A stretch of 38,006 nt of DNA from a virus. Below, one piece after another: positions 3,095-35,517 of the stretch. A program made the position numbers and the translations under genes. The stretch spans positions 1-38,006 of the IMG/VR virus record IMGVR_UViG_3300006876_000002. One strand, written 5' to 3'. Every line of letters starts with the position of its first letter. Within the stretch, counting starts at the first letter, position 1. A model generated the notes under the pieces. The model had not been told where the DNA came from. It saw only the letters and a list, made by a program, of their open reading frames with translations, and ran no database searches.

Positions 3095-3121
3095 TGGACA
3101 GTGTAGCTCAGTTGGTAGATG
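3095..3121 (+). promoter_or_regulatory. bipartite late-promoter-like element, site A
   Basis: TGGACA (3095-3100), 14 nt, then GTAGATG (3115-3121). The same arrangement precedes three other rightward gene blocks (6235, 9751, 15845). If GTAGATG holds the -10 element, the transcript would begin near 3128 and small terminase translation would begin at the ATG at 3182 instead of 3119. Confidence 0.5.
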
Positions 3122-3568
3122 CAACTACGCAACACAGGCCCCGAAACCCGTTGGCGCAAAGACGACTCAGGGCAACTCGTCATGCCCGACGCCCAATCCG
3201 ACTACCTCGACTGGCTCATCACCGACGACAAGATGCCAGACACCGAGGCCGAATGGTGCCGCCTCCACGGAGTAGCGCGAGACACCGTCCGCAAATGGCG
3301 ACAAGACCGACGCTTCAAAGAAGCATGGGAACGGCGCAGCGTCGAAAAGCACATCTCCCCCGACCGCCTACACAAAGTCATCGATGTCCTTTATCACTCA
3401 GCAGTCGGCACCGGCGACGTTGCTGCGGCTAAGCAGTATCTGCTTCACACGGAGAAGTACATGCCGCCGCGTGAGGTTAGGCGGGACGCGTCGGTTGCGC
3501 ATCTGACTGATGCGGAGCTGGTGGCCGAGGTCGAGGGCATCCTTGCCGCAGGGTTCGGTCGCACGTGA
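3119..3568 (+). CDS. terS: terminase small subunit
   Basis: This subunit recognises phage DNA and recruits the large terminase. The protein is 149 aa from the ATG at 3119; an in-frame ATG at 3182 gives 128 aa. A helix-turn-helix typical of small terminases lies near residues 40 to 65 (TEAEWCRLHGVARDTVRKW), followed by helical oligomerisation and a C-terminal large-subunit-binding part. Order (terS then terL, with a GTGA overlap) supports the call. Codon use is uneven: up to about 3410 it prefers A- and C-ending codons (aaa, gaa, cac), then changes to the G/T-rich style of the late genes, a sign of mosaic recombination inside the gene. The ribosome-binding site for 3119 is poor. Confidence 0.8.
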   Translation: MQLRNTGPETRWRKDDSGQLVMPDAQSDYLDWLITDDKMPDTEAEWCRLHGVARDTVRKWRQDRRFKEAWERRSVEKHISPDRLHKVIDVLYHSAVGTGDVAAAKQYLLHTEKYMPPREVRRDASVAHLTDAELVAEVEGILAAGFGRT

Positions 3569-4746
3569 GCGCCCCCGAGGACGCCACCCTCAGCGGGCAG
3601 GGGGCTGGTCGTCCTGCTGACCAGTGCGTTCCCCCGTCTTCGGGTGGCGCCCCTCAGGGCGGCGATTTGGTGGAAGCCCCCCCGCCCCCGTCAAGCAGGC
3701 TGCGGGAGGGCCTCCGAGACGAGAGCGTAGCACCGCTCTCGGGTACTAGTGGGGGGCGGGGGGTTACAGCCGGCTCGGCCGACGGCGGCGGTGCCCCCGC
3801 CCCCATGACGGACCCCCAGGCCCCGTCTGCGACCAGGGCGTCTGCGTCGGCTACAGAACGTAGCACCGTCTCAGGGGACCGTGCACGCCTGGAGGAGCTG
3901 CGGGCCGAAGCACTGTGGCGGTGGTACGCCCGCGATGAGGTGGCGTTCCTTGAGCGGGAGTGGTCGATCGCCACGCCCTCAACGGGCAGGCAGCTCTTTA
4001 CCCTCAGGGATGCTCAGCGCTACGCGCTTAACCACTTCAACACGCACCGTTATTCCCTGACGCTTAAGGCTAGGCAGATTGGGTGGTCAACGCTGGTTGC
4101 TGCCCACGCGTTCCATTCGGCGTTCTTCGGTGAAGCCAGGGAGATCATCTTTCTCTCTCGTGGTGAGCGTGAAGCTACGCAGTTGATGACGAAGGTGAAG
4201 TATGGGTACAAGCATCTCCCCCAGTGGTTGCTCGATAAAGGGCCGAAGATTAGAGCTGACCACCAGCAAAGAATGCTTTTCGACAACGGGTCGAGCATTG
4301 TATCTATGCCTTCCGCCAGTGATCCTGCCCGAGGTTCCACGGCGTGGCTGGTGGTGGTGGATGAATGGGCGTTCTTACCCAATGCCGAAGAGGCGTGGGC
4401 GTCTATCGAGCCTGTTGCGGACATCGGGGGACGCATCATCGGTCTGAGTACCGCTAACGGTTCGGGTAACTTCTTCCATCAGCTGTGGGTGGATGCTGAG
4501 ACGGGCAACAACAACTTTGCCACGATGTTCTTTCCGTGGTCAGCTAACGAGGATCGTGACGCCGACTGGTATGAGGCTAAGCGCTCGTCTATGTCGGATT
4601 GGCAGCTGTGGCAGGAGTACCCGACGAATAGCGATGAGGCGTTCGTGCGGTCGGGTAGGCCCTACTTTGACCTAAGCACGATTCAGCGTAGGTCGGCTGA
4701 GGTCAAGCAGCCGAAGCTGGGACACCTGGTGGACGTTCCGACCTAA
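3565..4746 (+). CDS. terL: terminase large subunit, ATPase half
   Basis: This 393-aa protein is the ATP-driven motor half of terminase. The Walker A motif KARQIGWST is at about 168-176, Walker B LVVVDEW at 262-268 with the catalytic Glu, and the coupling motif STANG at 295-299. It ends at residue 393, just after the hinge, without the nuclease fold; the RuvC-like nuclease is encoded 312 nt downstream in the same reading frame. The first roughly 100 residues are a Pro/Gly/Ser-rich low-complexity region unusual for terminases; a start at the ATG at 3805 would remove most of it, while the GTG at 3565 overlaps the terS stop by 4 nt. See the separate entry on the split. Confidence 0.85.
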   Translation: MSAPEDATLSGQGAGRPADQCVPPSSGGAPQGGDLVEAPPPPSSRLREGLRDESVAPLSGTSGGRGVTAGSADGGGAPAPMTDPQAPSATRASASATERSTVSGDRARLEELRAEALWRWYARDEVAFLEREWSIATPSTGRQLFTLRDAQRYALNHFNTHRYSLTLKARQIGWSTLVAAHAFHSAFFGEAREIIFLSRGEREATQLMTKVKYGYKHLPQWLLDKGPKIRADHQQRMLFDNGSSIVSMPSASDPARGSTAWLVVVDEWAFLPNAEEAWASIEPVADIGGRIIGLSTANGSGNFFHQLWVDAETGNNNFATMFFPWSANEDRDADWYEAKRSSMSDWQLWQEYPTNSDEAFVRSGRPYFDLSTIQRRSAEVKQPKLGHLVDVPT

Positions 4747-4750
4747 GGGC

Positions 4751-4864
4751 ATGGAAACGCTTCTCGCACATACCGACGACACCATGATCCCTGGCGGGTT
4801 CTGGTGGGTCATCATTGTCCTTATCGCTGTTGTCATTCTGCTCAAGGTGCTGGACCGCATCTAG
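4751..4864 (+). CDS. 37-aa single-TM protein inside the terL split
   Basis: The frame begins METLLAHTDDTM and has one strong hydrophobic segment at about residues 14 to 34 ending in KVLDRI. It starts 4 nt after the stop of the terL ATPase half. Its TAG stop at 4862-4864 lies in the palindrome CTAG, whose other strand is the stop of the opposing 60-aa gene, so the two convergent genes share four bases. It is too small for recognition. The TM prediction and the neat fit suggest a real gene, but there is no experimental support. Confidence 0.5.
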   Translation: METLLAHTDDTMIPGGFWWVIIVLIAVVILLKVLDRI

Positions 4865-5043
4865 CGATAGCCCTCGTGCCGCAGCACGATCGCATCACGT
4901 CCGTGCCATTCGTGCTCTAGCAGAAAATCGATCCACGCTTGGTTATCGCCGTTGAAGCAGATGTCATGCGGGTGGCTATAGATGCGGATGTCAGGACCAT
5001 CTTCGCCACACTCATTGCATCGGACCGTCCAGTGAATACTCAT
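4861..5043 (-). CDS. 60-aa Cys/His-rich protein, antisense within terL split
   Basis: The protein has CNECG near the N-terminus (residues 9 to 13) and a downstream IYSHPHDIC block, giving three Cys and two His that could bind zinc. The C-terminal part is a short helix (WIDFLLEHEWHG). It resembles small Cys/His actinophage proteins seen from memory, but I assign no function. It runs leftward against the late operon, with its start 16 nt before the start of the terL nuclease half and its stop shared with the convergent 37-aa gene in CTAG. An independently transcribed accessory gene (moron) is the simplest reading. Confidence 0.6.
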   Translation of the reverse strand: MSIHWTVRCNECGEDGPDIRIYSHPHDICFNGDNQAWIDFLLEHEWHGRDAIVLRHEGYR

Positions 5044-5058
5044 GACAGGGCAGTATAG

Positions 5059-5766
5059 ATGATCCGCTTCGAAGCGAACGAGGGCGGTAAGTCGCCCGTG
5101 CAAATATGGGTACTCCCCGACGCGCAGCACAGGTACTGCATGGGCGCTGACGTCGCTGAGGGCCTGGACCACGGGGACTACAGCGACGCCAGCGTGCTTG
5201 ACGCTAACACTGGCGAGCTGGTCGCCAAGTGGCACGGCCATATCCCGCCTCGGGAGTTCGGCCATCAACTGGCGCTGCTCGGTCGCTTCTACAACAACGC
5301 TCTGATCGGGTGCGAGGCCAACAACCACGGGTTGTCGACCATCGACGCTTTGAGGGATTTGAAGTATCCGAGGCTGTACCGTCGCCGTTCGCTTGACTCG
5401 ACGTCGAAGAAGGCGACGCTCAAGTGGGGTTGGTACACGAACAAGCAGACCAAGCCTTTGATGATTGACGGTTTGGATCAGGCGCTCAGAGACGATGCAA
5501 TCATCGTGTATGACCGCAACACCTTCGGGGAACTGCGGACATACATCCGTGATGAGAAGGGCTATCTGCACGGCTCACCACACGACGACCGCGTGGTGAG
5601 CCTGGCTATTGCTGTGCAGATGTTGGACTACGTCAACTCAAGTGAGGTTGACGAGTTCCAGATCAAGGACGATCGTGGAACATTTGATTGGTGGTTGCGT
5701 CAGGCGAATGCGGCGGATGCGCCTGACATTCAGCCGATCGGCTACCACCAGCGACGCAACCTCTAG
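5059..5766 (+). CDS. terL: terminase large subunit, nuclease half
   Basis: This 235-aa protein has the RuvC/RNase H-like nuclease of large terminases, which cuts concatemeric DNA. Acidic residues expected for two-metal catalysis are visible: Asp31 in GADVAEG, Glu86 in GCEANNHG, and Asp176/177 in HDDRVVSLAIA near the end. It starts directly at the strand preceding the first catalytic Asp (PVQIWVLPDAQHRY), exactly where the ATPase half stops. A stop codon (TAG at 5056-5058) immediately precedes the ATG, so the halves cannot be one frame without splicing. The two halves most likely assemble as separate chains. Its stop is in a CTAG shared with the opposing gene. Confidence 0.85.
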   Translation: MIRFEANEGGKSPVQIWVLPDAQHRYCMGADVAEGLDHGDYSDASVLDANTGELVAKWHGHIPPREFGHQLALLGRFYNNALIGCEANNHGLSTIDALRDLKYPRLYRRRSLDSTSKKATLKWGWYTNKQTKPLMIDGLDQALRDDAIIVYDRNTFGELRTYIRDEKGYLHGSPHDDRVVSLAIAVQMLDYVNSSEVDEFQIKDDRGTFDWWLRQANAADAPDIQPIGYHQRRNL

Positions 5767-5921
5767 ATGTCGTCGGTTCCCGTTAACAGCAGGAAACCGC
5801 CCGCTAGCTCGATGCCGACGGCCAACGCCCAATGGGTCAGGTCGTTCCAGGCCAGGAACACGGCGGCGCCAATCAGCAGAGCGCCGAGTGAGCGGAGTCC
5901 GTAGGTCAGTGCTCGTCGCAT
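5763..5921 (-). CDS. 52-aa membrane protein, antisense in late operon
   Basis: The start at 5921 gives MRRALTYGLRSLGALL and two hydrophobic segments (about 9 to 25 and 31 to 48) separated by WNDLTH. The basic N-terminus predicts an N-in hairpin. The stop codon lies in CTAG 5763-5766, which also holds the TAG of the terL nuclease half on the other strand. It is the second case of a CTAG-shared stop in 1 kb. It is 13 nt downstream of another leftward gene, so the pair may be one transcript. Function unknown. Confidence 0.6.
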   Translation of the reverse strand: MRRALTYGLRSLGALLIGAAVFLAWNDLTHWALAVGIELAGGFLLLTGTDDI

Positions 5922-5934
5922 CGTGCGACTGTAC

Positions 5935-6207
5935 TCACGGTGGCGTGATCTTGTAGCCCATCTGCCGCAACGTCTGGACCGCGATGCCCCTGGTTTCGGG
6001 ATCGGCCACCAGGACTTCAACGTTCTCTTGGGCCTGTACCCGCAGCTGCCTGACGATGTCGTCCAGGCCATCGTGCGGGTGCATGATCCCTGGTTCGGGC
6101 AGGCCCCTGGCGGCGTTGGCGATGCGGTCCAGGTAGGCCAGCTGCTCGTCGAGGTCTTTCTCAGCCTTGACGAGAGCGTCGGACAGGATGGTCTTGCAGT
6201 TGGTCAT
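5935..6207 (-). CDS. hypothetical helical protein, 90 aa
   Basis: The protein is predicted to be mostly helical and acidic in its first two thirds (DALVKAEKDLDEQLAYLDRI), ending in a short domain with ETRGIAVQTLRQMGYKITPP. No membrane segment or catalytic motif is visible. It is the first gene of a leftward pair in the middle of the rightward virion operon, so it must be expressed from its own promoter near 6210-6250. I do not recognise it. Confidence 0.6.
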   Translation of the reverse strand: MTNCKTILSDALVKAEKDLDEQLAYLDRIANAARGLPEPGIMHPHDGLDDIVRQLRVQAQENVEVLVADPETRGIAVQTLRQMGYKITPP

Positions 6208-6806: not shown

Positions 6807-8711
6807 ATGCCTAGAGAGTCAAAGGCTAAGGCGCTTGAGCGGTACCGCGGTCTAGTTGATAACGCTATCCGTTTTCGGGATGAGCAAGGCTACGATGAGT
6901 TGTGGTGGCGGCTCATTGACATGTACCGCGGTAAGCAGGTTGTTGAGCTGACACCTGAGGACCGCATTACGGTCAACATTTCTTTCGGTACTATTAATGT
7001 GATCTTTCCTTCGGTGTCGGTGAACTATCCGAAGATCACTGTGTCACCGAATCAGCCTGAGGACGAAGACGTTGCTGTCATCGTGGAGCAGCTGATCAAT
7101 TGGCAGTGGAAGCACTTTGGGTTTCAGCCCGAGTTCCGTGAGGCGGTCAAGGACTGGTTGGTCCTCGGTCATGGGTGGATCAAGGTCGGGTACGCCTTCA
7201 AGGAAGCTGCTGTCCCTCTGACGGGTGACGATCTTGAGGCGGAGTACGGTCGGCGGATCGAGGAGGCCGACGAGTACGCGGCTGCCTATCCCGAGATGGC
7301 TGGCGATCTGCCTACCGATGAAGAGATTCGTGCGGGTCTGACTACGTCGCAGATGGCGGTGGTGGTTGATCAGCCGTTTGTTGAGCGGGTGTCGCCGTTT
7401 GACATGTTCGTTGATCCTGCTGCTACTCGGTTGCAGGACGCTCGTTGGATTGCTCAGCGGATCGTTCGGCCGCTCAATGAGGTGAAGGCGGACAAGGACT
7501 ACAAGAAGAGTGTTCGGGAATCTGTCAAGGCTGACATGCAGTCGTACACGCAACGTGACGACAAGATGTGGCGCCGCAAGGAGAACCTGAACAACCCCGA
7601 CATGTCCTATTGCACTATTTGGGAATTCTATGACCTGGGTGCGCAGACGATGTGTGTATGGGCCGAGGGCGCCGATCAGTACCTGGTTGACGCTGAGCCG
7701 ATGCAGTTCGCCTACGGGCATCCATTCGTGATGATTCGGAATTATGACATCCCCGAATACTTCTATCCGATGGGTGACCTTGAGAGCATCGAGTCGTTGC
7801 AGCAGGAGTTGAATAAGACTCGTTCGCAGATGATGCAGGCTCGTAAGAAGTTTGCTCGTAAGTACCTGTACAAGGAATCGGCGTTTGACAAGACGGGGCG
7901 GCAGGCCCTGGCGTCGGACATCGATAACACATTCGTTCCTGTGTCGGATGAGGGTTCACCTCTGCAAGAGACTGTTGTGCCTCTGCCACAGGTCCAGTTC
8001 CCACCTGAGATTTACAATCATTCGGAGATCGTCGAGCAGGACATCGCCACGGTCACGGGCGTTAGCGAGTATCAGCGGGGTCAAATCTCCGAGACTCGCC
8101 GTACCGCTACCGAGGCGGCGATCATCTCGGACTCGATTAGCGCTAGAGCGGCGGACAAGCTGGCTGTCGTTGAGACGACGTTGTCGCTTGTGGCTCGCCG
8201 TGTGGTTCAGGTGACCCAGCAGTTCACCACTGGGGATCAGGTGTTCCGTGTGGTTGGCGCTGACGGCGCGATGTTGTGGGTGCCGTGGAGCCGCGACGAG
8301 ATCCAGGGTGAATTTGACTTTGAGGTCGAGGCTGGTTCTACCCAGCCGCTGAATGAGACGGTGCGCCGGCAGACTGCTGTTGCGGTCAGTCAGGCGCTGG
8401 CGCCGTTTATTCAGATGGGTGTGGTTAACCCTCAGTCGATGGTCCGTTACCTGTTGCAGTTCGGGTTTGGGATTAGGGATGCGAACAAGTTCTTGATGCA
8501 GCCCGATCCGATGATGATGGGCATGGGTGGTGCCCCTCCGCCTGGCGCTCCGCCTGGGGTTGGTGGCGGGCAGGGGCCGCCCATGGGTGACGGCTATATC
8601 GATCAAGAGACTGGCAATACCGCCAACCAGGAGCTTGAGCAGCAGGCGATGATTCCGCCTGAGCTGCTCAATCAGCTTGCTGGGCAGGTGGGCCTGGGGA
8701 TGTCGGGATGA
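6807..8711 (+). CDS. portal protein (head-tail connector)
   Basis: At 634 aa this is the right size for a podovirus portal, the dodecameric ring through which DNA enters and leaves the capsid. The N-terminal part (RFRDEQGYDELWWRLIDMYR, then VNISFGTINVIFPSVSVNYP) and the central LVLGHGWIKVGY region match portal proteins; the long helix near residues 415 to 450 (ISETRRTATEAA) fits the portal stem. The C-terminus has a Met/Pro/Gly-rich tail. It follows terL and precedes scaffold and capsid, as expected. The stop overlaps the next ATG by 4 nt. Confidence 0.88.
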   Translation: MPRESKAKALERYRGLVDNAIRFRDEQGYDELWWRLIDMYRGKQVVELTPEDRITVNISFGTINVIFPSVSVNYPKITVSPNQPEDEDVAVIVEQLINWQWKHFGFQPEFREAVKDWLVLGHGWIKVGYAFKEAAVPLTGDDLEAEYGRRIEEADEYAAAYPEMAGDLPTDEEIRAGLTTSQMAVVVDQPFVERVSPFDMFVDPAATRLQDARWIAQRIVRPLNEVKADKDYKKSVRESVKADMQSYTQRDDKMWRRKENLNNPDMSYCTIWEFYDLGAQTMCVWAEGADQYLVDAEPMQFAYGHPFVMIRNYDIPEYFYPMGDLESIESLQQELNKTRSQMMQARKKFARKYLYKESAFDKTGRQALASDIDNTFVPVSDEGSPLQETVVPLPQVQFPPEIYNHSEIVEQDIATVTGVSEYQRGQISETRRTATEAAIISDSISARAADKLAVVETTLSLVARRVVQVTQQFTTGDQVFRVVGADGAMLWVPWSRDEIQGEFDFEVEAGSTQPLNETVRRQTAVAVSQALAPFIQMGVVNPQSMVRYLLQFGFGIRDANKFLMQPDPMMMGMGGAPPPGAPPGVGGGQGPPMGDGYIDQETGNTANQELEQQAMIPPELLNQLAGQVGLGMSG

Positions 8712-27622: not shown

Positions 27623-27729
27623 CAGTGTCGGTCCCTGACGAACATGGCGGCCACCGATAGGCACACCACAGCGATACCAACCATGGCGAAGAACGCCCTG
27701 GTTGTTTCCCACATTGTGTATGCTGTCAT
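27622..27729 (-). CDS. 35-aa single-TM peptide between primase and rusA
   Basis: The frame MTAYTMWETTRAFFAMVGIA continues to a TM helix (about residues 13 to 30) and a basic end. Its start overlaps the primase stop and its stop overlaps the rusA start, each by one base (TGATG). This perfect fit at both ends strongly supports translation. A membrane peptide between replication genes is curious; function unknown. Confidence 0.6.
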   Translation of the reverse strand: MTAYTMWETTRAFFAMVGIAVVCLSVAAMFVRDRH

Positions 27730-28697
27730 CAGTACAGGGCGTCTCTCTCGGTAAGGACCTTGTTGACTATCTCAGCTATTCGGATATCAGCATCGCCTCT
27801 ATCGGTGTACTTTCCCCAATCAGCGTCTGCTTTATGCAATACATGAACTATTTCTTCTGGCTCATGTGTGCGGTCGCGAGCAATGCGACCACCCAGTGCA
27901 ACTAATGCAGATGACCTGTCTGCGTCTTTGGGTCCGTTGTCGAAGAGGCGACGGGCGTCTTTGCTCAGCTGTTCGATGAGTGCGTCGGTTGATTCGTAGC
28001 TCTCATCGATGACGTAGTTCACCTGCGGGGCATAAGCACGGTGCTTATACTGGGGCCTTGGCTTATACCTTGCGGCCAGGTCTTCTAGCATTGAGGGTTC
28101 GCATCGGTTGTCCCATGCGTCCATGACGAATGCCTGCACGGTGATCGGCATACCTGTGTCCTGGTCGATCATCACTCGGCGTTCGTCTGGTCCGTCGTTG
28201 CACAGTGCAGCTGGGTATGGGAGACGGACATAGTTGCCGACCTGGCCGTCATCTAGGTGGGTCTGCTTAGGGTTGATCTCCTTGGTTGGGGCGTCGCAGA
28301 ACTCGCAGGCGTACAGCAGCGCGTTGCGCATGATCTCAGGGAGCAGCCACTCTTTGCAGAAGACCCACACGTGATAGCCCTTGGACCGTGAGCGCTCCAC
28401 CCACGCTTTGATGTCGTGGTATTCGAGGAGGTAGGCGACGTTCTGCGCATGTTGACGTGAGGTCTCTTCGCCTTCGTCAAAGTCGATGCAGCCCCACTTG
28501 ACCTTCATGTCGCGAGGATCGATGGGATAGACACCGATGAATTCGATGCCAGAGAGGTGGTCGGTGGCTACGTCTATCCACCAGTCCCCTACCTCGACGC
28601 TGCCACCGTCCTCCGTGCCGAAGCGCTCCTGGTTGCCCTCGTAGAGGGCAGCGAAGAGGTCGATGACTAGTTCGTCATTGATCGCCGAAGTAGCCAT
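27729..28697 (-). CDS. AEP-superfamily DNA primase
   Basis: Residues near 75 to 130 show archaeo-eukaryotic primase motifs: CIDFD (catalytic Asp pair), RSRSKGYHVWVF (the sxH-like motif) and later VGNYVRLPYP. The family makes primers on single-stranded DNA, here probably for phage replication alongside the DnaB-like helicase. The start at 28697 is chosen for its GAAAGA ribosome-binding site; GTG at 28721 or ATG at 28718 would add 7 to 8 residues. The C-terminal 100 residues are helical and may bind the helicase. No DNA polymerase is encoded nearby, so elongation must use the host enzyme. Confidence 0.75.
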   Translation of the reverse strand: MATSAINDELVIDLFAALYEGNQERFGTEDGGSVEVGDWWIDVATDHLSGIEFIGVYPIDPRDMKVKWGCIDFDEGEETSRQHAQNVAYLLEYHDIKAWVERSRSKGYHVWVFCKEWLLPEIMRNALLYACEFCDAPTKEINPKQTHLDDGQVGNYVRLPYPAALCNDGPDERRVMIDQDTGMPITVQAFVMDAWDNRCEPSMLEDLAARYKPRPQYKHRAYAPQVNYVIDESYESTDALIEQLSKDARRLFDNGPKDADRSSALVALGGRIARDRTHEPEEIVHVLHKADADWGKYTDRGDADIRIAEIVNKVLTERDALY

Positions 28698-29019
28698 CGG
28701 TCTTTCGGCAACAGCCATCACAACCGTGCACGCTCCACTCGCCCGTGGGGTTGGTGAGCATCAGGTAGTCGAGGCAGTCGGGGTCAGGGTGGCCGACGCC
28801 GTGACGGCAAATGCGTTCCATCAGCGGGGCTCGGTCGGCACGGAAGTGGAGTCGCCACATGGTCATGTGGTGCGGGCTCGGCTTATGGATGCAGCAGTGA
28901 CGGCCGGCGCAGTCCTTGTAGCTGTGGTGCTGGATACGTTGCCCAGTACCCGTATACGAGTACTCGTACTGTTCGTCTTCGATCAGGTCTTTGACGGTGG
29001 TTTCAATCGTTGCAGACAT
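28675..29019 (-). CDS. Cys/His-rich protein, 114 aa, actinophage type
   Basis: The central block CAGRHCCIHKPSPHHM, then MERICRHGVGHPDPDCLDYL and GCDGCC, is rich in Cys and His and predicts one or two zinc sites. I recall similar proteins (HPDPD motif) from many actinobacteriophages, where they have no known function. It overlaps the primase start, so the two are translated together; this may mean a role at the fork. Confidence 0.65.
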   Translation of the reverse strand: MSATIETTVKDLIEDEQYEYSYTGTGQRIQHHSYKDCAGRHCCIHKPSPHHMTMWRLHFRADRAPLMERICRHGVGHPDPDCLDYLMLTNPTGEWSVHGCDGCCRKTDGYFGDQ

Positions 29020-29547: not shown

Positions 29548-29780
29548 GTGACTTCCTCGTACATGACGTCATGTATTGCAGGGTCAATCGGGTAGGGGTA
29601 GCCGTCAGGGTCGACTGCAAGCCACCCGTCGCGGCGCTCTAGAGTGCCCTCTCGGGTTTCCACCATGAACGGTCCCTTGACCTGGAACATGCGGGTGGCA
29701 CGCGTCTTGCGGAACCGACGCCAACCCTCCCAGTCCCTGGGAGGTACGTTGTCTTTGGTGTAGATCATCATTGTCGTCAT
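29544..29780 (-). CDS. small PGDYG-type hypothetical protein, 78 aa
   Basis: Residues FQVKGPFMVETREGTLERRD and DGWLAVDPDGYPYPID resemble a small beta domain seen in phage and bacterial proteins next to SLOG proteins (PGDYG-type). It overlaps genes on both sides by 4 nt. The link to the following SLOG gene suggests a shared pathway. Function unknown. Confidence 0.58.
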   Translation of the reverse strand: MTTMMIYTKDNVPPRDWEGWRRFRKTRATRMFQVKGPFMVETREGTLERRDGWLAVDPDGYPYPIDPAIHDVMYEEVT

Positions 29781-30727
29781 GACGCTTTCCTCAAGTCATC
29801 CGCCCGCTTCGGACGGATACGACCAGTAGCCCCATCGAAGAACAGGTCAACAGTGGTCGTCTCACCACGCTTGTTCTTGCACAATGACAACGTGATGGTG
29901 TTCTTGTACTCCTCACGGGCACGTTGCGGTAGCGACTCGTTGTCATAACGCTGGACAACTTCGACCATGAACGTTGCTTCGTTCTGGCCGCCGTACAACA
30001 TGCCGTGAATCCCACGCAGCCTTCCGCGAAACTCTTGACTCTTTGCTGACTGCTGGATGCACATGATTGGCAGTCGCTCGATCTTCCCGAACGCCTTGAG
30101 TCCTTTGGCGGCTGCGGCCTCGTCCGTGAACCCTGGGATTGAACCGAGGTAGTCGATCATCACTATGTCGATCTCTCGTTGACGGACATCCTCCAGCTTG
30201 TGTCGGATCTCAGCCAACGTCTTGAGCGACAGAGCTGTGTCGATAATTGATAGGTGCGGGAACTCCTTGGTAGCGGCTTTGCGCAGCAACTTGACCGCTT
30301 CGTTGTCTTTCGCTTTGATGCGATCCTCAAACTCGGTACGGCGGATACCGTGCTTGATGCACAGCAGCTTTACCAACACATCCTCGGCCACTTCGTCGGG
30401 AGTCAGGTACAGGATGTGCTTGTCTCTGTTGTGCACCACCGATTGCAGCATGACCCACGTCTTGCCCTGTTGCACCTGCCCAAAGATGAAACACAAGTCA
30501 CCCTTGCCTGTGCCCCGCATCATGACATCGATTTCGTGGATACCGAGCATGATTCTGTTCGACGGGTTCTGAATATATTCGACATAGTTATCGGCTACAT
30601 CGCTGAGGGGTCGTATCTGCGGTACGAGCTGCTTGAGTTGCGCGGCGGAAGCTTTCGCCTCCGCCGCGTCTCGTTGCGCGATCCGCTCCCTGATCTCTTC
30701 GACATCGGGGAGGGTCGCTACCGTCAC
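29777..30727 (-). CDS. DnaB-like replicative helicase
   Basis: A 316-aa RecA-fold ATPase. Walker A is GQVQQGKTWV (after IMLGIHEIDVMMRGTGKGDL), Walker B is DIVMIDYL, followed by a Gln-containing sensor region (MCIQQSAKSQEF) and an Arg-finger part near KNKRGETT. The N-terminal 60 residues are helical. It is shorter than bacterial DnaB (about 450 aa) and lacks the full N-terminal domain. GTG start at 30727, 2 nt after the preceding TAG. With the AEP primase it forms the phage replisome core. Confidence 0.78.
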   Translation of the reverse strand: MTVATLPDVEEIRERIAQRDAAEAKASAAQLKQLVPQIRPLSDVADNYVEYIQNPSNRIMLGIHEIDVMMRGTGKGDLCFIFGQVQQGKTWVMLQSVVHNRDKHILYLTPDEVAEDVLVKLLCIKHGIRRTEFEDRIKAKDNEAVKLLRKAATKEFPHLSIIDTALSLKTLAEIRHKLEDVRQREIDIVMIDYLGSIPGFTDEAAAAKGLKAFGKIERLPIMCIQQSAKSQEFRGRLRGIHGMLYGGQNEATFMVEVVQRYDNESLPQRAREEYKNTITLSLCKNKRGETTTVDLFFDGATGRIRPKRADDLRKAS

Positions 30728-30729
30728 GC

Positions 30730-31071
30730 CTAGACCAGCTCCTCGATGATGTCGACCAGGCGGCGGACGAGGGCACGCTCCTGCGACAGGAGCGCCTCGG
30801 TGTCCCACAGGCGGTCGCGCAGATCGTCTTGGGCAAGCTGCCGGTCCATCTCGGCAATCATCAAGTCTTGGTCGGTGGGCTCCCGACCGAGGAAGCGGTC
30901 AACACCAGCGGGCTCATCCTCGAAAGGCACACCGCCGAAGTCGTCCAGGGTCGTGAGAAGAAGATCCCACTCATCGTTGGTGAAGTTGACGAACTTGCCG
31001 CCGTTCTCGTACTTGAAATGGAGAGCGACGCGGTCCTTGTCAGCAGTTGACAGGCGCTCAAGGATGGTCAC
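30730..31071 (-). CDS. hypothetical protein, 113 aa
   Basis: GTG start at 31071 (TILERLSTADKDRVALHFKY) overlapping the previous stop by 4 nt. The first half (KFVNFTNDEWDLLLTTLDDF) looks globular and the second is a charged coiled coil (DLMIAEMDRQLAQDDLRDRL). Immediately upstream of the helicase, so a helicase loader or partner is possible but only by position. Confidence 0.6.
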   Translation of the reverse strand: MTILERLSTADKDRVALHFKYENGGKFVNFTNDEWDLLLTTLDDFGGVPFEDEPAGVDRFLGREPTDQDLMIAEMDRQLAQDDLRDRLWDTEALLSQERALVRRLVDIIEELV

Positions 31072-34566: not shown

Positions 34567-35517
34567 TCAGGCCAGGCGGTCCCCAACCTGCAACTTGCGC
34601 TGCGCCTTGCGTGCCCGCTCGCTGGCCGCCGAGCGGCCATAACGGTCGACCATCTGTCGTGACGTCCAGCCCATTGTCCGCACCAGGTCCCCCTCCTCCC
34701 CGCCTTCCATCAGGAAGTTGTGAGCGTGAGTGTGGCGGAAGTGCTGCGGCTTCAACCGATGCGGCAAACCCGCTAGCCGGCGGCGCCGATCGATCGCCTG
34801 GTTGATACCTGACTCGCCCAACGGCTTGCCGTTGCGGTTCACCCACAACCTGTCGTGTTCGACACCCAGGCGACCGACGAAACGATCCCGCTCTCGGACA
34901 TAGCGGATCAGCGCTACGGCCGTCTTGGGTGACACCACAAGGTCACGGCTGTAGGTCTTCGACTGACGCACGTGGACCTCATCGATGTCCCGCCGCCAAT
35001 CCTCGGCCAACATGCCATGCAACTCCCCTCGACGGACGCCGATCCCGAAGAACGTACGGATCATCGCCTCGTCACGGAGGTTGACGAGCCTCCGCCACCC
35101 CGTGTCCATCTTGGTGACAGCGCACGCAGCGATGAGCTGGTTGACGACGTCATCAGGTTGCACGGGTACAGGCTTGTCGGGCTCAGGCGGTTGCTGCGCC
35201 TTGTAGAACGGACTGACCCTGTCCTCTTCGTCTGCCCACCACGTGAACATCGGGCGAGCTGTGCGAAAGTAGATGCACAACGACTGCGGGTCCAGCCGTT
35301 GTTCGTCCCGCATGTAGGCCACCCAGCTGTGCACGTGTGCCCTGGTCACGTCCTCTATGTCCGTGATCTCGTGCTCGGTGACGACGTAGCGCACCAGGCG
35401 CTCCCAGCCGTCACGGTTCATGTCGAGCGTCTTCTGCTTGCGGCCCACCTTGCGGGCCTCCCGCTCGTACAGGTCCCATCCGTCCTCGAACGAGTCGGGT
35501 GCGGTCCACCTGCCCAT
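34567..35517 (-). CDS. int: tyrosine integrase
   Basis: A 316-aa site-specific recombinase of the phage integrase family. The N-terminal SAM-like core-binding region (about 60 to 130) precedes a catalytic domain with Arg in GIGVRRGELHGM, His-x-x-Arg in LKPQHFRHTHAHNFL, and the nucleophile Tyr in MVDRYGRS. The gene ends with a basic tail. attP lies about 75 nt upstream of its start, the usual arrangement for excision control. It is the only integrase in the window. Confidence 0.92.
   Translation of the reverse strand: MGRWTAPDSFEDGWDLYEREARKVGRKQKTLDMNRDGWERLVRYVVTEHEITDIEDVTRAHVHSWVAYMRDEQRLDPQSLCIYFRTARPMFTWWADEEDRVSPFYKAQQPPEPDKPVPVQPDDVVNQLIAACAVTKMDTGWRRLVNLRDEAMIRTFFGIGVRRGELHGMLAEDWRRDIDEVHVRQSKTYSRDLVVSPKTAVALIRYVRERDRFVGRLGVEHDRLWVNRNGKPLGESGINQAIDRRRRLAGLPHRLKPQHFRHTHAHNFLMEGGEEGDLVRTMGWTSRQMVDRYGRSAASERARKAQRKLQVGDRLA

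What the first reader, a model, noticed from the sequence alone, without database searches (positions are those of the whole stretch)
3565..5766. Terminase large subunit split exactly at the ATPase/nuclease hinge by a 312-nt insert
The ATPase half stops just after the motor fold and the nuclease half begins just before its first strand, in the same frame and with almost nothing missing. The insert holds two opposed mini-genes (37-aa TM and 60-aa Cys/His). Options are two separate chains that assemble, or a small intron. Two convincing mini-genes favour the first; the preserved frame and the lack of loss keep the second open. A two-polypeptide TerL would be an unusual packaging motor.
Basis: partly seen in the sequence, partly recalled or inferred. 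Interest (0 to 1): 0.75.

Follow-up and report, generated by a model that had tools for sequence, protein, structure and literature searches.

The report
Two-gene DNA-packaging motor in phages
In this phage and in a large group of uncultured relatives, the DNA-packaging motor protein that is normally one chain (ATPase plus nuclease) is encoded as two separate, conserved genes, so the motor is probably built from two kinds of chain; split motors were already annotated in a few actinobacterial phages.

Summary
The split is real: TerL ATPase half at 3565-4746, nuclease half at 5059-5766, 312 nt between. It is not an intron and probably not a gene broken by its insert. Relative L006 (85%/82% aa) has the same split with only 140 nt between, the nuclease in another frame, the TM mini-gene kept and the Cys/His gene absent. 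A large clade of uncultured phages at about 65% identity (70 contigs examined in detail) has terL as two genes with little or no insert: the nuclease start overlaps the ATPase stop by 4, 7 or 20 nt, usually behind a GGAG-type ribosome site inside the ATPase gene. A sister group (19 of 19) and all more distant relatives are intact. Both halves keep catalytic residues and are under strong purifying selection; seven split records searched hold no second TerL. Hence two separately translated chains that must assemble; small genes (TM, Cys/His, elsewhere ferredoxin) lodge at the junction. The break is about 28 residues inside the nuclease domain, between two strands, not at the hinge. Two-gene TerL is already annotated in Arthrobacter cluster AY and Gordonia Nyceirae phages: a new variant of a known kind, much broader than I found documented.

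The parts
3119..3568 (+). probable terminase small subunit (HTH), stop overlaps the start of the ATPase chain
   Evidence: PHROG terminase small subunit 1.2e-4; homologous gene in the same place in L003/L006
3565..4746 (+). TerL ATPase chain (393 aa from GTG 3565; conserved part starts about 3862). Walker A KARQIGWST, Walker B LVVVDE. Its last ~29 residues belong, in intact homologues, to the start of the nuclease domain
   Evidence: Terminase_6N 5e-11; alignment to intact TerLs; dN/dS 0.09 against L006
3565..3861 (+). 74% GC low-complexity N-terminal extension, absent from L006; coding status unsure
4747..5058 (.). junction between the two TerL genes (312 nt here, 140 nt in L006, none or an overlap in most relatives)
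4751..4864 (+). 37-aa single-TM protein gene (METLLAHTDD...KVLDRI), 4 nt after the ATPase stop
   Evidence: 59% identical homologue at the same place in L006; dN/dS about 0.15, excess of synonymous changes p=0.001; best-scoring codon frame
4861..5043 (-). possible 60-aa Cys/His protein gene, convergent with the TM gene; only in this phage; weakly supported
   Evidence: no relative beyond the identical contig, absent in L006; best codon frame of its stretch, but weak score and no clear ribosome site
5059..5766 (+). TerL nuclease chain (235 aa, own ATG); catalytic D31, E86, D176/D177 kept
   Evidence: model pLDDT 84, T4 gp17 nuclease Z 22.5; dN/dS 0.12
6807..8711 (+). portal protein (context: normal head-packaging order)
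   Evidence: SU10/P22-type portal 6e-27

Best explanation
terL exists here as two cistrons, an established trait of this phage lineage. The ATPase chain carries the motor fold, the hinge and the first strand of the nuclease domain; the nuclease chain starts at or near the next strand and holds the RNase-H-like domain. They are translated separately but coupled (in most relatives overlapping or adjoining stop/start, usually with a ribosome site inside the ATPase gene), and (inferred) rejoin without a covalent bond, the last strand of the ATPase chain completing the sheet of the nuclease chain, to give a packaging motor of two kinds of chain. Once the gene was in two, the junction became an ordinary gene boundary in which small genes (TM gene, then Cys/His gene; ferredoxin in L121) could lodge. 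Shown by sequence: two genes, conservation, selection, position of the break. Inferred: assembly through the strand, and function in packaging.
For: Same split in L006 with a different insert and frame. Of the best 80 hits of one scan, all that hold both halves are split except one intact lineage; the intact sister group is 19/19 intact, 28/28 further loci of the large clade are split, 23/23 distant ones intact. In 70 split contigs the nuclease start lies at -4 (43), -7 (10), -20 (13), 0, +2 or +274; GGAG-type site in 47, weaker in 20; frame offsets 2, 1 and 0 all occur; no in-frame slippery heptamer in 70. dN/dS 0.04-0.12 for both halves where dS was not saturated. Catalytic residues of both halves conserved. 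One TerL set per record in 7 split records and no second TerL in the window. Structure: the break lies between strands of the nuclease domain; the first 9 residues of the isolated nuclease model have pLDDT<50, the matching strand in the intact model is confident. Cultured phages with the same gene state exist.
Against: No protein or transcript data. For T4 gp17, separated domains keep ATPase and nuclease activity but lose translocation (PMC9958956), though they were cut elsewhere. The strand-completion idea rests on one model of an intact homologue and on low confidence at the end of the isolated chain. Whether the window pair and the large clade share one split is unresolved (AU p=0.228); their break positions differ by one strand.
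Confidence: 0.87

Rival explanations
1. A small intron (group I/II) interrupts terL and is spliced out, as in the terL genes of Jug phages.
For: Same frame and almost nothing missing in the window; terL introns of ~200 nt are documented in Jug phages with splicing seen in RNA (PMC12363816).
Against: No Rfam intron match at permissive thresholds in the window or L006; insert folds no better than shuffles (z +1.4 and -0.9); L006 insert of 140 nt is nearly filled by a conserved TM gene; most relatives have no insert and overlapping ORFs.
Confidence: 0.02
2. Programmed frameshifting or stop bypass makes a full-length TerL from the two frames.
For: In most relatives the ORFs overlap by 4-20 nt or more, which frameshifting needs; the overlaps in AY and Nyceirae phages (17-20 nt) leave it open there.
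Against: Both frame directions and frame 0 occur; no slippery heptamer in 70; own start codon and usually ribosome site; hardly possible across the 140-312 nt with other genes in the window, L006 and L121.
Confidence: 0.06
3. An insert broke an intact terL in this phage's own lineage, separately from the large clade: the TM gene is the cause of the split, and TerL is damaged or tolerates it.
For: The window and L006 break lies one strand upstream of that of the large clade, so their split may be a separate event, and a TM gene is present in both members.
Against: L006 is 15-18% diverged and both halves are under strong purifying selection, so the split is neither recent nor decayed; the Cys/His gene came after; the large clade is split without an insert.
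Confidence: 0.1
4. Sequencing or assembly error creates the stop.
For: Metagenome contig.
Against: A second identical contig (L002), L006 independently, and tens of split relatives.
Confidence: 0.005

Closest known systems
Arthrobacter cluster AY phages (BillyTP PP978841, BlueShadow) and Gordonia phage Nyceirae (KX557282): TerL ATPase and nuclease domains in two consecutive genes
   Same: Two adjacent genes, TerS upstream and portal downstream, break between ATPase and nuclease domains; grown in culture, so the state is viable
   Different: TerL not among the relatives of this one found here; ORFs overlap by 17-20 nt with nothing between, so frameshifting is not excluded there; here other genes lie between the halves, which argues strongly against it
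T4 gp17 (TerL with Terminase_6N and 6C)
   Same: Closest solved fold for both halves; same catalytic residues
   Different: One chain; its separated domains lose translocation in vitro (PMC9958956)
Genes-in-pieces of T4-like phages: Aeh1 nrdA, phage 25/44RR gene 43A/43B, T4 topoisomerase 39/60
   Same: Essential enzyme in two chains that reassemble; in phage 25 the insert may have come after the split (PMC2988022)
   Different: Associated with homing endonucleases or an untranslated spacer; no endonuclease gene at this junction
Jug phage terL with group I introns (PMC12363816); TerL inteins (Mic1, PMC7156551)
   Same: Interrupted terL
   Different: Restored to one chain by RNA or protein splicing; neither intron nor intein sequence found here

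Membership tests
TerL, T4 gp17-like (Terminase_6N + RNase-H nuclease) | ASCE ATPase with Walker A/B | tested here: met
   Terminase_6N 5e-11, above cut-off; KARQIGWST and VVVDE conserved
TerL, T4 gp17-like (Terminase_6N + RNase-H nuclease) | RNase-H-like nuclease with D, E, D | tested here: met
   D31, E86, D176/177 invariant in 29 rows, aligned with the catalytic acids of T4 gp17 (triad named in PMC9958956); Z 22.5 to 3cpe; Pfam 6C itself below cut-off
TerL, T4 gp17-like (Terminase_6N + RNase-H nuclease) | both domains on one polypeptide | tested here: not met
   separate ORFs in window, L006 and the large clade
Two-gene (split) TerL as in cluster AY phages | ATPase and nuclease domains in two neighbouring genes, TerS before, portal after | tested here: met
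   likeness of gene state, not of descent
Two-gene (split) TerL as in cluster AY phages | two chains work together in packaging | not testable with these tools
   needs protein work; inferred from selection and lack of another TerL
Group I/II intron | intron core structure | tested here: not met
   no Rfam match
Intein or split intein | intein sequence at the joint | tested here: not met
   the halves align to intact TerLs up to the joint with no extra residues left for an intein; no Pfam intein match in either half
Homing-endonuclease-split gene | endonuclease gene between the pieces | tested here: not met
   only 37-aa TM and possible 60-aa Cys/His genes; no endonuclease family match

The most novel reading that the evidence does not exclude
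A large, so far uncultured phage clade packages DNA with an obligate two-chain TerL whose chains are joined only by strand completion across the nuclease sheet, showing that the covalent hinge linkage held essential in T4 is dispensable, and making the joint a site where extra genes, perhaps motor- or membrane-related, are added.
Probability: 0.45. Interest if true: 0.8.

Novelty: new variant of a known kind. Interest (0 to 1): 0.62.

Why it matters
Models of headful packaging couple the ATPase to the DNA-gripping or nuclease domain through a covalent hinge; T4 domains cut apart stop translocating. A lineage that has run its motor as two genes through deep divergence is a natural test of that coupling and a source of two-part motors for structural work. 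It also warns annotation and TerL-based phylogeny pipelines, which may score such phages as having a truncated terminase.

Tried and rejected
Intron: Rfam permissive searches and RNA folding, nothing. Inserted Cys/His gene as the cause of the split: absent from L006 and not found in other viral contigs or phages. The first scan with the L006 half alone brought, besides the split pair, intact relatives at 45-57%, which for a while suggested that the split was confined to two phages; the scan with both ATPase halves overturned that. Frameshift signals: none. One shared origin for all splits: not rejected, AU p=0.228, so I claim neither one nor two. Host: one genome-collection hit, distant, not informative. 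Paper searches for 'split terminase' found nothing; the AY papers turned up through domain wording.

Full report
Observation. The window holds terS (3119-3568), an ORF of 393 aa (3565-4746) with the TerL ATPase domain, a 312-nt gap, and an ORF of 235 aa (5059-5766) with the TerL nuclease domain, then the portal gene. Contig L002 is identical through the split.

Nearest relative. L006 has both halves at 85% and 82% identity, each ended or started at the same place, but with 140 nt between them, the nuclease half in another frame, a 35-aa homologue of the TM mini-gene behind a good ribosome site, and no Cys/His gene. dN/dS is 0.09 (ATPase), 0.12 (nuclease) and about 0.15 (TM gene; synonymous excess p=0.001). 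So both halves and the TM gene are maintained, and the Cys/His gene is most simply a later arrival.

Wider relatives. About 40 TerL loci at 25-57% identity, and the complete genome MW202803, are intact. A scan with both ATPase halves then found more than 550 relatives, of which the best 80 were kept, most at 63-67% identity. Nearly all that hold both halves are split; the exceptions, L135 and L136, belong to one intact lineage. A scan from that lineage gave 19 intact of 19 in it, 28 split of 28 in the large clade and 23 intact of 23 farther off. Some of these contigs recur between scans. The closest record in the phage collection is the intact MW202803 at 52%, so I find no cultured member there. 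I have no habitat data for these contigs.

How the two genes are read. In 70 split contigs (33 distinct at 93% identity in the ATPase half) the nuclease start lies 4 nt (43), 7 nt (10) or 20 nt (13) inside the end of the ATPase gene, at 0 (1) or +2 (2), or +274 (L121). It is ATG in 46 and GTG in 24; a GGAG-type site stands before 47 and a weaker one before 20, written into the codons of the conserved ...VVEFR tail. All three frame relations occur and no in-frame slippery heptamer is present. That is the signature of coupled translation of two cistrons rather than frameshifting. In L121 the gap holds a ferredoxin gene (Fer4_15, 4.6e-17) overlapping both neighbours by 4 nt. Seven split records searched contain one ATPase half, one nuclease half and no other TerL; the window likewise. 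Records may be fragments, so this is not proof for whole genomes.

Where the break is. In the model of intact L003 (pLDDT 86) solved ATPase domains align to residues 5-258 and solved nuclease domains start at 256-260. The window break falls at 286/288, in the turn between strands 277-285 and 288-293; the large clade breaks about 12 residues later, before the strand at 299-301. So the ATPase chain keeps the hinge and one or two strands of the nuclease domain. The isolated nuclease chain folds confidently (pLDDT 84, T4 gp17 Z 22.5) except for residues 1-9 and its C-terminal tail, which fits, without proving, that the N-terminal residues need the strand of the other chain. This may explain how natural splits could work although T4 domains, cut apart, do not translocate DNA (PMC9958956).

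History. In the combined tree the large split clade (100/100), the intact L136 group (100/99) and the pair window+L006 (100/100) are each solid; the intact group sits between the two split groups with weak support (83/71), which would mean two splits, and the differing break points agree; but one origin is not rejected (AU p=0.228).

Known or new. Two-gene TerL is described for most Arthrobacter cluster AY phages (PMC11920828, PMC12820723) and annotated in Gordonia Nyceirae, with 17-20 nt ORF overlaps. Split enzymes that reassemble are known from T4-like phages (PMC2988022). Searches of an open-access library found no report of this clade; most subscription papers were not searchable. Hence: a new variant of a known kind, with the extra weight of clade-wide conservation and of inserts that argue against frameshifting. 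The working of the two-chain motor is inferred.

Noticed in passing
3565-3861: Low-complexity, 74% GC stretch at the start of the ATPase ORF, absent from L006, with a 12-nt perfect inverted repeat (3678-3689/3752-3763) and a 14-nt repeat (3722, 3855); may be an insertion read in frame, or the true start may lie inside it (ATG 3805).
   Followed up: partly
5763-6207, minus strand; L006 1894-2423 minus: Small minus-strand ORFs, one with a TM-like stretch, sit between the nuclease half and the portal in both phages but seem unlike each other: a zone of small-gene turnover to which the Cys/His gene may belong.
   Followed up: partly
L121:1761-2042: A ferredoxin gene (Fer4_15, 4.6e-17) lies between the two TerL genes of a distant relative, overlapping both by 4 nt.
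   Followed up: yes
34567-35517 (-): Tyrosine integrase (Phage_integrase 4.7e-16): the phage may be temperate.
   Followed up: no
27729-28721 (-) and 29777-30808 (-): Archaeo-eukaryotic-type primase (AEP-TOTE 5e-16) and DnaB-like helicase as separate genes.
   Followed up: no
L066:600-2259; L067:1339-3010: In BillyTP and Nyceirae the two TerL ORFs overlap by 17 and 20 nt in different frames; whether these are two chains or a frameshift product seems untested.
   Followed up: partly
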